Assembly (NCBI RefSeq): GCF_019285775.1
Contig: NZ_CP079105.1
Span: 1,302,001 to 1,366,000 of the forward strand
DNA: 64,000 nucleotides
DNA from: Skermania piniformis
Lineage (GTDB): Bacteria; Actinomycetota; Actinomycetes; Mycobacteriales; Mycobacteriaceae
Direction of reading: 5' to 3'
Positions 9,525 to 21,049 of this stretch are shown here, piece after piece. Every line of letters starts with the position of its first letter. Within the stretch, counting starts at the first letter, position 1. Both the position numbers and the translations under genes were made by a program. The notes below the pieces were generated by a model, which did not search any database, had not been told where the DNA came from, and was given only the letters and a program-made list of their open reading frames with translations.

Positions 9525-9734
9525 ATGGAACGGATCGCGACCGGCTGGGATGCGGTCGAACTGTGGATTGCCGGACTTCCGTTCGTGCCCCAATTGTTCG
9601 TGGTATTACTCGCCGTCCTCCCGATCTGCTTCCTGATCGCCAGGACGCTGGACGCGACATCTGCGGCGATTGTGCGACTGGTCGGTCGGGGTGTCGGGGA
9701 ATCGCGCCGCGACTCGATGGACGGCTTGGGTTGA
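9525..9734 (+). CDS. Small single-pass membrane protein
   Basis: 69 residues. MERIATGWDAVELWIAGLPF is followed by a hydrophobic stretch (about residues 20-40, FVPQLFVVLLAVLPICFLIA) and a basic tail, so one membrane segment with a cytosolic C-terminus is likely. Function unknown. A -10 box TAGGCT 6 nt upstream suggests a leaderless start at the ATG. The stop overlaps the next micro-ORF (TGATG). By position it may correspond to the small membrane protein next to subI in mycobacteria (Rv2401A); this is an inference from order only. Confidence 0.65.
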   Translation: MERIATGWDAVELWIAGLPFVPQLFVVLLAVLPICFLIARTLDATSAAIVRLVGRGVGESRRDSMDGLG

Positions 9735-9811
9735 TGCCGCGCTCCAGGGTGACCACCGCACTCGTGCTGTTGCTGATCCTGCTGGTCGTGGCCTGGTTCG
9801 CGACCCGGTAG
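9734..9811 (+). CDS. 25-residue membrane micro-protein
   Basis: A 25-codon ORF whose ATG overlaps the preceding stop (TGATG), so translation would be coupled. The product is MPRSR followed by a hydrophobic run (VTTALVLLLILLVVAWFA) and ends TR, a minimal positive-inside transmembrane helix. Shorter than most gene callers accept. No family recognised; the support is the coupling and the clean membrane segment. Confidence 0.45.
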   Translation: MPRSRVTTALVLLLILLVVAWFATR

Positions 9812-9847
9812 CCGGCTGGTCGACTGGCCTCCCTTTGGTCGCTCTGC

Positions 9848-9853
9848 TACGGT
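9848..9853 (+). promoter_or_regulatory. -10 box TACGGT for the subI leader ORF
   Basis: TACGGT is followed by exactly 6 nt and then GTG 9860, predicting a leaderless mRNA whose first codon starts the leader peptide upstream of subI. Confidence 0.5.
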
Positions 9854-9859
9854 TTTCCG

Positions 9860-9949
9860 GTGCCCGCAAATTCCGCTCGAACGATCCGCCATGAGCTGGC
9901 GTTGATCTCGATCGGTGCGCTTGCGGTTGCCGACGTCGCCTGTCGGTAG
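9860..9949 (+). CDS. Putative sulfur-responsive leader peptide upstream of subI
   Basis: 29-residue leaderless ORF (GTG start, 6 nt after a TACGGT -10). It begins MPANSARTIRHELALISIG and ends with VADVACR, placing the only Cys second from last. It stops 118 nt before subI. Cys-containing leaderless uORFs act as cysteine-responsive attenuators of sulfur operons in mycobacteria; this peptide lacks the poly-Cys run but has the same position and terminal Cys. The intervening leader can form a hairpin that masks the subI Shine-Dalgarno sequence (10049-10064). No experimental evidence; the reading frame could be fortuitous. Confidence 0.5.
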   Translation: MPANSARTIRHELALISIGALAVADVACR

Positions 9950-10048
9950 CGGTCTGGTAGTGGTGAGCCCGGCGTAACGGACTCGAGGCTCGCCCATTCC
10001 TTTCGAATATTTCGGCTGCGCGTCGTCGCGTCGCCGTTCGGAGTTCCC

Positions 10049-10064
10049 GATGAGAGGTCTCGTC
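10049..10064 (+). promoter_or_regulatory. Hairpin covering the subI ribosome-binding site
   Basis: GATGAG-AGGT-CTCGTC pairs as a 6-bp stem (one G-U) with a 4-nt loop. The SD GAGAGG (10052-10057) is inside it, 10 nt before ATG 10068. Could gate translation of the sulfate-binding protein. Confidence 0.35.
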
Positions 10065-10067
10065 ACC

Positions 10068-11096
10068 ATGAAAAAGAAAACCTACTCCGCTGCAGCCGCT
10101 TTGGTGGCGATTGGAGTTCTGGCGCTCACCGCCTGCTCGGGTGGGGCCAGTGATACTGTGGGCGAGTCGAATTCCGCCGGATCGGGCGGAATAACCCTCA
10201 ACCTCTATGCCTTTGCGGTACCCAAGCCTGGGTTCGACAAGGTGACGCCGGCCTTCGCCGAGACCGACGCCGGTAACGGAGTCACGGTACAAGCCAGTTA
10301 TGGTGCGTCCGGAGATCAGTCCCGCAAGGTGCGCGACGGCGCCCGGGCCGACGTGGTCAATTTCTCTGTCGCGCCGGACGTCACCCGGCTGGTCGATGCG
10401 GGTTTGGTCGATTCGAACTGGAATGCCGATGCCAACAAGGGGATTCCGTTCGGATCGGTGGTGACTCTGGTGGTGCGCAAGGGGAACCCCAAGGGAATTC
10501 GGAACTGGGACGACCTACTTCAACCGGGTGTGGAGGTGGTGACGCCCAACCCGTACAGCTCGGGTTCGGCCAAGTGGAACCTGCTCGCGCCGTACGCGGT
10601 CAAGAGTGAGGGCGGACGTAATCAGCAGGCCGGTCTGGACTTTCTGGACAAGCTGGTCGGCGAACACGTGAAGGTGCAGCCGAAGTCGGGCCGTGAGGCG
10701 ACCGAGACGTTCCTGCAGGGCACCGGTGACGTACTGATCAGCTACGAGAACGAGGCCATCTTCACCGAGCGCAACGGTGATCCGGTCGAACATGTCACCC
10801 CGCCCGACACGTTCAAAATCGAGAATCCGGTCGCGGTGGTGAAGACGTCCGAGCACCTCGCGCAGGCGACCGCCTTCCGCGACTACCTGTTCACCGAGCC
10901 GGCGCAGAAGCTCTGGGCCGAAGCAGGTTTTCGGCCGGTGGACCCGGCGGTGGCCGAGCAGTTCAGCACCGATTTCCCGACCCCGCAGAAGCTCTGGACA
11001 ATCGATGACCTGGGTGGCTGGAGCGCGGTCGACACCGATCTGTTCGCGCCCGACACCGGCAAGATCTCGGTGATCTACGACAAGGCGACGAAGTAG
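10068..11096 (+). CDS. subI: Sulfate/thiosulfate-binding lipoprotein
   Basis: 342 residues. Periplasmic-side binding protein of the sulfate ABC importer. ATG 10068 is preferred over 10050 because it gives a compact lipoprotein signal (MKKK, hydrophobic core, lipobox LTAC, Cys23) and is preceded by GAGAGG at 10 nt. The mature part has the sulfate-binding-protein pattern: TLNLYAFAVPKPGFDKVTPAF, ASYGASGDQSRKVRDGARADVVNFSVAPDV, NPYSSGSAKWNLLAPYA and GDVLISYENEAI. First gene of subI-cysT-cysW-cysA; the next start is 5 bp after its stop. Preceded by a putative regulatory leader ORF. Confidence 0.95.
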   Translation: MKKKTYSAAAALVAIGVLALTACSGGASDTVGESNSAGSGGITLNLYAFAVPKPGFDKVTPAFAETDAGNGVTVQASYGASGDQSRKVRDGARADVVNFSVAPDVTRLVDAGLVDSNWNADANKGIPFGSVVTLVVRKGNPKGIRNWDDLLQPGVEVVTPNPYSSGSAKWNLLAPYAVKSEGGRNQQAGLDFLDKLVGEHVKVQPKSGREATETFLQGTGDVLISYENEAIFTERNGDPVEHVTPPDTFKIENPVAVVKTSEHLAQATAFRDYLFTEPAQKLWAEAGFRPVDPAVAEQFSTDFPTPQKLWTIDDLGGWSAVDTDLFAPDTGKISVIYDKATK

Positions 11097-11101
11097 CCGT
11101 C

Positions 11102-11944
11102 GTGAGTACTGCGCAGAAGTCGGCCGCGGGCCGGTGGCGCGGCGGCCCGCCGGCGTCCGGCGCGGTCGGATCGCTCGGCATCGGCGTGGCGGTGCTGTGG
11201 TTGTCCCTGATCGTGTTGTTGCCGTTGGCCGCGTTGACCGTCACCGCCTTCGAGGACGGGATCCGTGGCTTCTGGGCTGCGGTGACGGCGCCGGCCGCGC
11301 TCGCCTCGCTGAGCTTGACCGTGACGGTGTCCGCGGTGGTGGCGGTGATCAACGTCGTGATGGGCACGCTCATCGCGTGGGTGCTGGTGCGCGACGACTT
11401 TCCCGGCCGGCGACTGGTCGACGCGCTGATCGACCTACCGTTCGCGCTGCCGACCATTGTCGCGAGCCTGGTGCTGCTCTCGTTGTACGGGCCGCAGAGC
11501 CCGATCGATGTGCACCTCAACGCAACCCGGCCCGGCTTGGTCGTTGCACTGGCCTTCGTCACGCTCCCGTTCGTCGTTCGGTCGGTGCAGCCGGTGCTCC
11601 ACGAGCTGGACCGCGACGTCGAACAAGCCGCAGCGTCGCTCGGCGCGGACAACTGGACCACCTTCCGGCGGATCGTGTTGCCGGCGTTGGCCCCGGCCAT
11701 CCTGTCCGGGGGTGGGCTGGCGTTCGCTCGCGCCATCGGCGAGTACGGATCGGTGGTGCTGATCGGTGGGAACATTCCGCGGGTCACCCAGATGTTGTCG
11801 CAACACATCCAGCAGCAGATCGAAATCGATCGCCCGACGAGCGCCGCAGCCGAGTCGGTGGCGTTGTTGGCCATCGCATTTGCCACCTTGCTGGTGCTTC
11901 GGTTGTTCGCCGATCGCGGGTTACGCCGTGAACAGCGGGCGTGA
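11102..11944 (+). CDS. cysT: Sulfate ABC transporter permease CysT
   Basis: 280 residues with about six membrane segments, the first at about residues 22-45 (GSLGIGVAVLWLSLIVLLPLAAL). The EAA loop that contacts CysA is clear: EQAAASLGADNWTTFRRIVLPALAPAILSG, with the family-typical FARAIGEYGSVVLIGGNIP after it. It pairs with CysW to form the sulfate channel. GTG start 5 bp after subI; CysW follows after 9 bp. It is more like CysT than CysW (GSVVLIGGN versus GAVIMVSSG). Confidence 0.94.
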   Translation: MSTAQKSAAGRWRGGPPASGAVGSLGIGVAVLWLSLIVLLPLAALTVTAFEDGIRGFWAAVTAPAALASLSLTVTVSAVVAVINVVMGTLIAWVLVRDDFPGRRLVDALIDLPFALPTIVASLVLLSLYGPQSPIDVHLNATRPGLVVALAFVTLPFVVRSVQPVLHELDRDVEQAAASLGADNWTTFRRIVLPALAPAILSGGGLAFARAIGEYGSVVLIGGNIPRVTQMLSQHIQQQIEIDRPTSAAAESVALLAIAFATLLVLRLFADRGLRREQRA

Positions 11945-20839: not shown

Positions 20840-20953
20840 CTACTGGCGAACGACGACCGGACACCGCGCGCTGCACACGCGCTGGAAGTCGACATGACGG
20901 CGAGAGACGAGGCGTAGGCCGCGGGCAGCGGCGTAGCTCGTCGAACCGGTCAT
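20840..20953 (-). CDS. Sulfur-metabolism leader peptide upstream of sirA
   Basis: 37-residue ORF (ATG 20953, TAG 20840) on the sirA strand. Its core LVSRRHVDFQRVCSARC fits the actinobacterial leader-peptide pattern R-x-H-V-D-[LF]-x-R-x-x-S-A-x-C seen upstream of sulfur-assimilation genes. It ends 109 nt before sirA. Ribosome progress over its two cysteines could sense cysteinyl-tRNA. The hexamer CATCAT sits 6 nt before the ATG, close to but not a perfect -10 box, so leaderless expression is possible. Confidence 0.75.
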   Translation of the reverse strand: MTGSTSYAAARGLRLVSRRHVDFQRVCSARCPVVVRQ

Positions 20954-21049
20954 CGTCCCATGATGCCATGTCGGATCGGGATGCTCGATTCGACGATCGC
21001 CAGGTGCCCCGATGGTGGCGCACTTCGCCGGGGGAGTGACGATGAGCGG

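What the first reader, a model, noticed from the sequence alone, without database searches (positions are those of the whole stretch)
9848..9949. Leaderless Cys-terminated uORF upstream of subI
A TACGGT -10 box is exactly 6 nt from GTG 9860, which opens a 29-codon ORF ending ADVACR and stop, 118 nt before the sulfate-binding protein. It parallels the poly-Cys leaderless uORFs of mycobacterial sulfur operons but has one Cys at the penultimate position and a different sequence from the sirA leader. It may be a second leader class.
Basis: partly seen in the sequence, partly recalled or inferred. Interest (0 to 1): 0.6.

Follow-up and report, generated by a model that had tools for sequence, protein, structure and literature searches.

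The report
Known cysteine leader peptide before subI
The short gene in front of the sulfate-uptake genes belongs to an already catalogued family of cysteine leader peptides; comparing relatives suggests that one cysteine is enough, that its codon is UGU in every relative examined, and that an RNA hairpin inside the gene is kept, which the usual "run of cysteines" picture does not explain.

Summary
In detail: TACGGT lies 6 nt before GTG 9860, which opens MPANSARTIRHELALISIGALAVADVACR*, 118 nt before the likely subI start. It is not a new leader class. It scores 42.8 bits against NCBIfam NF042937 "Ms4533A family Cys-rich leader peptide" (cut-off 31). That family exceeds its cut-off in 151 of 301 genomes sampled from the window's GTDB family. 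A leaderless-type ORF of this kind precedes subI in 68 of 78 named loci, including the closest one returned, Aldersonia. It does differ from the window's sirA-type leader.

One Cys before a final Arg is common: xCR* ends 44 of 137 distinct leaders, in 16 of 22 genera. Two features may be new: the conserved Cys codon is UGU in 137 of 137 leaders and in 89 of 93 leaders of sister families, whose other Cys codons are mixed; and a hairpin over codons R-H-x-L-A (9887-9901) is kept in 122 of 137. Folding gave no support for a stalled ribosome unmasking the subI ribosome-binding site. Best reading: a cysteine-responsive attenuator of subI-cysTWA, a known kind, with its output step unresolved.

The parts
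9845..9853 (+). extended -10 element TGC-TACGGT; TACGGT 9848-9853 is 6 nt before GTG 9860
   Evidence: TAnnnT 6-8 nt before the chosen start codon in 140 of 142 leaders
9860..9949 (+). leaderless-type leader ORF, MPANSARTIRHELALISIGALAVADVACR*, Ms4533A family
   Evidence: NF042937.1, E 4.2e-11, 42.8 bits against cut-off 31
9887..9901 (+). conserved hairpin HP1, CGCCA-UGAGC-UGGCG, over codons R-H-E-L-A
   Evidence: 5 Watson-Crick pairs in 122 of 137 distinct leaders against a mean of 4.5 (max 12 in 1000 draws) for synonymous codons drawn at spacer composition; -5.8 kcal/mol in the window
9929..9947 (+). possible second hairpin HP2, GCCGACG-UCGCC-UGUCGGU, pairing the Asp codon with the UGU Cys codon (core 9931-9945)
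   Evidence: core pairs in 115 of 137 against null mean 28.4, max 52; window -3.0 (core) and -8.3 kcal/mol (extended), but weak on average (-1.38) and no predicted fold in 46 of 137
9941..9943 (+). conserved Cys codon, TGT, followed by Arg codon CGG and stop
   Evidence: TGT in 137 of 137 distinct leaders at this column
9950..10067 (+). untranslated spacer between leader stop and subI start; no intrinsic terminator found
   Evidence: 31 C and 33 G in its first 100 nt, so without the C>G bias seen in 116 of 120 leaders
10068..11096 (+). subI, sulfate-binding lipoprotein (longest ORF from 10050)
   Evidence: Pfam solute-binding families; relatives in named genomes; the name subI is by similarity and context
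11102..11944 (+). ABC permease, cysT-like (name by position)
   Evidence: PF00528
11954..12760 (+). ABC permease, cysW-like (name by position)
   Evidence: PF00528
12757..13797 (+). ABC ATPase with TOBE domain, cysA-like
   Evidence: PF00005 and TOBE

Best explanation
The ORF is the subI-operon leader of the Ms4533A family: a cysteine-responsive, ribosome-mediated attenuator. Transcription starts at the GTG (inferred from the -10 geometry). A 70S ribosome starts on the leaderless GTG and reads to the UGU codon, two codons before the stop. When Cys-tRNA is short it dwells there, and the subI-cysTWA operon is expressed; when cysteine is plentiful it terminates and leaves, and expression falls. 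Shown here: family membership, conserved position, geometry, peptide and UGU. Inferred from the published system: response to cysteine and its sign. Unresolved: how ribosome position reaches subI. My first guess is Rho-type polarity on the untranslated spacer, which is C-biased in most relatives, with a rival in unmasking of the subI ribosome-binding site.
For: NF042937 hit above cut-off; 151 of 301 sampled genomes of the GTDB family above cut-off, 165 of 301 at E<=0.001, 0 of 14 controls; subI downstream in 138 of 142 and TAnnnT geometry in 140 of 142; 68 of 78 named SubI loci carry it (some are the same genomes as the unnamed ones). Purifying selection on the peptide: between genera, pN 0.18 against pS 0.59 in the core outside HP1; V, D and C invariant in 137 of 137 (the D and C are required by my anchor, the V is not). 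Column conservation falls off at the stop codon. Cysteine-dependent attenuation by such M. smegmatis ORFs is stated in PMC9031893 (passages) and relied on in PMC9094748 (passages). For polarity: no intrinsic terminator in 9700-10150, and C>G skew 0.142 in the spacer against -0.028 upstream, higher in 115 of 120; 100-nt stretches before 40 other genes average 0.062, positive in 26 of 40.
Against: No transcript, ribosome or cysteine-response data were available for this organism. The window has one Cys codon, whereas the published regulators are described as polycysteine. The window's own spacer lacks the C>G bias (31 C, 33 G), which weakens the Rho idea here, and some bias is general (0.062 before other genes). 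A ribosome at the Cys codon does not unmask the SD in folding (0.391 with and without), so the published output step is not supported either.
Confidence: 0.85

Rival explanations
1. Passive published model unchanged: a ribosome paused at Cys codons physically blocks an RNA structure that otherwise hides the subI ribosome-binding site.
For: This is the mechanism I recall from the abstract of Canestrari et al. 2020 (paper not held). PMC13236596 describes SD unmasking by uORF stalling in general terms and cites Canestrari for cysteine genes (passages).
Against: With lipobox-checked subI starts, in 120 of 120 loci folded the SD was not clearly more hidden than with shuffled spacers (mean unpaired 0.391 against 0.414; lower in 63 of 120, p 0.25), masking the Cys region did not open it (0.391, p 0.63), and a gain above 0.2 occurred in 5 of 120. 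An earlier run with less reliable starts also showed no unmasking (109 of 129 loci). Spacer length varies from 70 to 242 nt and spacer columns are not conserved.
Confidence: 0.3
2. Nascent-chain arrest: the conserved peptide (RHxLALIAVG..AVAD[IV]xC) and its RNA hairpin, not the number of Cys codons, make the ribosome stop at UGU, as in arrest peptides.
For: 49 of 137 leaders have one Cys after the D[IV] motif, in 17 of 22 genera; pN/pS 0.31 in the core; the V two residues before D is invariant and only Cys or Arg follows the conserved Cys, 87 and 50 of 137; HP1 in 122 of 137.
Against: No stall data; peptide conservation could partly mirror RNA constraint, as synonymous sites in HP1 are also somewhat constrained (pS 0.47, against 0.58 to 0.65 in the neighbouring segments).
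Confidence: 0.3
3. The UGU codon, Asp codon and HP1 are conserved because the mRNA folds (or the DNA palindrome at HP1 binds a regulator), and the peptide is a by-product.
For: TGT 137 of 137 against 8% TGT among 134 Cys codons of the SubI genes; C-G to G-C swap at the outer HP1 pair in 14 leaders; in the 48-row alignment 95.6% of cells pair, reached by 0 of 500 shuffles, and the covariation score is reached by 2 of 500; in the window HP1 is a DNA palindrome with a 5-nt centre.
Against: The swap is confined to genus g30 (14 of 14), so may be one event; shuffles reach the count of pairs changed on both sides in 175 of 500, and a slide by +3 columns scores higher on covariation (0.194 against 0.183) though only 67.9% paired; HP2 changes are all one-sided and 46 of 137 have no predicted HP2 fold; amino acids are conserved where codons vary.
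Confidence: 0.25
4. Chance ORF with no function.
For: Short, one Cys, no transcript data.
Against: Conservation of sequence, place and geometry.
Confidence: 0.01

Closest known systems
NCBIfam NF042937.1, leader_Ms4533A (Ms4533A family Cys-rich leader peptide)
   Same: Whole-length match above cut-off; same place before subI; same leaderless-type geometry
   Different: One Cys, as in many relatives; ends Cys-Arg-TAG, where 69 of 72 leaders with their stop at this column have TGA
NCBIfam NF042936.1 leader_Ms4527A and NF042934.1 cis_reg_atten (RRHVDLxR...C leaders, which the window's sirA-type leader resembles)
   Same: Short leader ORFs with an Asp and a UGU Cys (89 of 93)
   Different: Different sequence; Asp-to-Cys distance 9 codons instead of 3; window sirA leader scores below both cut-offs
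Polycysteine leaderless short ORFs of M. smegmatis (Canestrari et al. 2020, recalled; cited in PMC9031893, PMC9094748, PMC13236596)
   Same: Leaderless-type uORF in front of cysteine/sulfur operons
   Different: No polycysteine run in the window
uORFC-8-2 motif before cysS in Rhodobacterales (PMC8632094, passage)
   Same: Cys codons in a uORF, ribosome-mediated attenuation proposed
   Different: Intrinsic terminator present; two tandem Cys codons; UGC dominates there

Membership tests
NF042937 leader_Ms4533A | profile score above the curated cut-off | tested here: met
   42.8 bits against 31, residues 1-29 to profile 1-30
NF042937 leader_Ms4533A | lies upstream of subI | tested here: met
   118 nt before subI
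Polycysteine leaderless attenuators (Canestrari et al. 2020, recalled) | leaderless start (transcript begins at the start codon) | tested here: inconclusive
   -10 box 6 nt before GTG and conserved geometry; no mapped transcription start
Polycysteine leaderless attenuators (Canestrari et al. 2020, recalled) | several Cys codons, contiguous | tested here: not met
   one Cys codon, TGT 9941
Polycysteine leaderless attenuators (Canestrari et al. 2020, recalled) | downstream expression rises when cysteine is short | not testable with these tools
   needs a reporter
Polycysteine leaderless attenuators (Canestrari et al. 2020, recalled) | stalled ribosome opens a structure that hides the downstream ribosome-binding site | tested here: inconclusive
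   thermodynamic folding gave no support in 120 loci; probing not possible
NF042936 / NF042934 (sirA-type leader) | RRHVDL..C profile match | tested here: not met
   the finding's ORF hits NF042937 only at E<=10

The most novel reading that the evidence does not exclude
Actinobacterial cysteine leaders are built around one position-specific UGU codon at a fixed distance from an Asp codon, plus (in the Ms4533A family) an in-ORF hairpin; the ribosome stops there because of nascent peptide and RNA context, not because it runs through a row of Cys codons. UGU is then a required part of the sensor, in at least two sequence families.
Probability: 0.3. Interest if true: 0.6.

Novelty: new member of a known kind. 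Interest (0 to 1): 0.3.

Why it matters
The window's ORF itself is a routine, useful annotation. If the UGU rule and the hairpin are functional, they would turn a vague "polycysteine" idea into a precise sensor with a testable codon, explain how single-Cys leaders (49 of 137 have one Cys after the D[IV] motif) can work, and give a simple way to find such leaders in other Actinobacteria.

Tried and rejected
Chance ORF: set aside because of conservation. New leader class: rejected by NF042937. Rfam at gathering thresholds: only two tRNAs in the window. SD unmasking by a stalled ribosome: no support. My first run (109 of 129 loci, stopped by my time limit; native 0.401, stalled 0.393, shuffled 0.384) used subI starts picked by SD strength alone, and several of the starts printed look internal; I repeated it with lipobox-checked starts (starts for 120 of 132 leaders with a SubI match, all 120 folded) and use those figures. 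The same applies to the spacer skew: 0.141, 123 of 130 positive; 0.142, 116 of 120 positive. Intrinsic terminator or full sigma-70 promoter in 9700-10150: none. Guessed accessions NF042935 and NF042938 turned out to be a 477-residue protein family and an Erm methyltransferase model; I used their 40 loci only as a composition control. My first anchoring mis-placed several leaders whose N-terminus reads VSD or VSA; the counts for HP1, HP2 and codons come from the corrected run. The column profile keeps that flaw in a few rows. Dropped before counts: L126 and L173 (no TAnnnT-linked start; L173 is from the one genome outside the GTDB family that passed the cut-off), L124 (28.6 bits, not recovered by my own profile), and duplicate ORFs; two leaders found in the upstream scan (L140, L145) were added. 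Of the 165 genomes with a hit, I fetched leaders from only part. The 137 leaders and the 93 sister leaders include close relatives, so the counts are not independent events; the genus counts are the safer ones. HP2 as a stable hairpin: not accepted. In one search, 7 of 103 loci gave no match to my pattern (L194, L195, L199, L230, L237, L307, L309) and three duplicates were dropped; that pattern requires Asp and Cys at fixed spacing, so it cannot test whether Asp is invariant there. The four TGC exceptions are L235, L285, L289 and L302. Literature on a UGU rule: none seen in the listings (titles and starts of abstracts) or in the passages I opened; the key paper is not held, so I do not claim it is unpublished.

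Full report
What is there. The stop is 118 nt before ATG 10068, the likely subI start. Downstream lie subI, two permease genes, an ABC ATPase with a TOBE domain, and a sulfatase. Only 16 of 3531 ATG/GTG triplets in the window have TAnnnT 6-7 nt upstream, and this is the only one of them that opens a 15-60-codon ORF with Cys in its last three residues. A consensus scan found no full sigma-70 promoter there, so the promoter rests on the -10 alone.

What it is. The peptide matches NCBIfam NF042937.1, "Ms4533A family Cys-rich leader peptide", over its whole length (E 4.2e-11, 42.8 bits, cut-off 31). Of 301 genomes sampled from the GTDB family, 165 have a match at E<=0.001 and 151 exceed the cut-off; 0 of 14 control genomes match. 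In the order-level sample 29 of 298 exceed the cut-off, and only one of these genomes (G339) lies outside the window's GTDB family. I pulled 142 leader ORFs: 138 have subI downstream on the same strand, and 140 have TAnnnT 6-8 nt before the start codon chosen by that rule (7 nt in 125, 6 nt in 12, 8 nt in 3). Of the four without subI, three sit within 40 nt of the end of the fetched stretch and one (L126) has no subI in 1.4 kb. In a scan with named genomes (partly the same genomes), 68 of 78 SubI loci with upstream DNA carry such a leader; the ten without are four Phycicoccus/Pedococcus, four Solirubrobacter-type, one Patulibacter and one uncultured actinobacterium. The closest SubI returned, from Aldersonia kunmingensis (76% identical; records of the window's own genome may be left out of that search), has VTASAVSQVRHRLALIAVGMLAVADIACR*.

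Is it a second class? It is distinct from the sirA-type leader of the window (minus strand, near 20840-20955), which resembles NF042936 and NF042934 but stays below both cut-offs. But the distinction is already in the databases. The single Cys is not special: 44 of 137 distinct leaders end xCR*, in 16 of 22 genera, and 49 of 137 have a single Cys after the D[IV] motif. In the named set 39 of 68 have one Cys in all. The residue after the conserved Cys is Cys in 87 and Arg in 50 of 137, nothing else.

Codon and RNA constraints. Over 137 distinct leaders from 22 genera the conserved Cys codon is TGT in all 137; synonymous codons drawn at the spacer's base composition give a mean of 50.8 and a maximum of 72 over 1000 draws. 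In SubI genes of these loci TGT is 8% of 134 Cys codons. In 93 leaders matched to the sister families the Cys nine codons after Asp is TGT in 89; other Cys codons in the same ORFs are 73 TGT and 105 TGC. So the preference belongs to a position, not to the ORF's composition. In sister leaders with several Cys the earlier ones are often TGC (for example DLC-TGC ... LC-TGT in KRRAVDLCRVATCLC), which speaks there against simple slow decoding at the first hungry codon; in the Ms4533A family the UGU is mostly the first Cys of the final run, so that argument does not apply to it. Reason unknown. Many of these leaders are close relatives, so counts overstate independent events.

HP1, [CG]GCCA-N5-TGGC[CG], is complete in 122 of 137 (null mean 4.5, max 12) and in the majority of leaders in 19 of 22 genera, with a variable 5-nt loop. 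The outer pair changes from C-G to G-C in 14 leaders, all of genus g30, where HP1 is complete in 13 of 22. On a 48-leader alignment 94.2% of HP1 cells pair; for HP1 and HP2 together the share of paired cells is reached by 0 of 500 shuffles and the covariation score by 2 of 500, but only 2 cells changed on both sides (27 of 500 shuffles reach that; 175 of 500 for pairs), and a slide by +3 columns scores slightly higher on covariation at 67.9% paired. HP1 is thus well conserved, with thin covariation evidence. In the window it is also a DNA palindrome, so a protein site is not excluded. HP2 would pair the Asp codon with UGU and is complete in 115 of 137 (null 28.4, max 52), but its changes are one-sided, and its energy is weak, with 46 of 137 not folding. 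In the window it extends to seven pairs thanks to CGG-TAG (-8.3 kcal/mol), and both hairpins appear in the minimum-energy fold, though the leader with its spacer is not unusually stable (z -1.38).

The peptide is also selected: between genera pN is 0.18 and pS 0.59 in the core outside HP1, while the N-terminus is nearly free (pN 0.58, pS 0.65). Column conservation falls off at the stop codon.

How it works. By analogy with the M. smegmatis ORFs (PMC9031893 and PMC9094748, passages; PMC4633059, passages and one legend, whose legend shows cysA2, Rv0485 and nirA examples but not subI), ribosome dwell at the Cys codon reports cysteine supply. The original 2020 paper was not available; its SD-unmasking model is recalled from its abstract. 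I tested the output step by folding: with lipobox-checked subI starts the SD is not clearly more hidden than with shuffled spacers (0.391 against 0.414; lower in 63 of 120, p 0.25), and masking the Cys region does not open it (0.391; gain above 0.2 in 5 of 120). There is no intrinsic terminator in 9700-10150. Spacers of the family are C-biased (skew 0.142, positive in 116 of 120; upstream -0.028), more than stretches before 40 other genes (0.062, positive in 26 of 40), as for Rho sites (recalled); the sister families share it (0.166, positive in 93 of 96). The window's spacer does not (31 C, 33 G). I therefore favour cysteine-responsive attenuation with high confidence, and leave the output step open, Rho-type polarity first.

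Verdict. Real, conserved, and a member of a known family; low to moderate interest. The UGU rule and the in-ORF hairpin are the parts worth following.

Noticed in passing
Matches NF042936 and NF042934 below cut-off.
   Followed up: partly
   Followed up: partly
L140:1154, L145:1283, L122, L125, L130: Divergent leaders of the type ...LALFAVEYRCVRDVMCR* with a second Cys upstream, before subI; two of them (L140, L145) come from genomes with no NF042937 hit at E<=0.001.
   Followed up: partly
L175-L204: No in-frame ATG/GTG with TAnnnT 5-9 nt upstream was found for any of 30 Ms4527A-type matches, unlike the subI leaders; other start codons or -10 variants were not tested.
   Followed up: no
G000:C1:3593664-3593720 (L235): Another leader of the NF042934 family in the window's genome, reading PLLTKRRTVDLCRLGGCCCLCF*, with a TAnnnT-linked GTG start.
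   Followed up: no
Streptomyces lividans metL (PMC8079986, passage): A leader annotated as methionine-dependent, MSTTSDRTPATEATTTPGARCMCRRMCAF*, has three Cys near its end and may be a cysteine leader instead.
   Followed up: no
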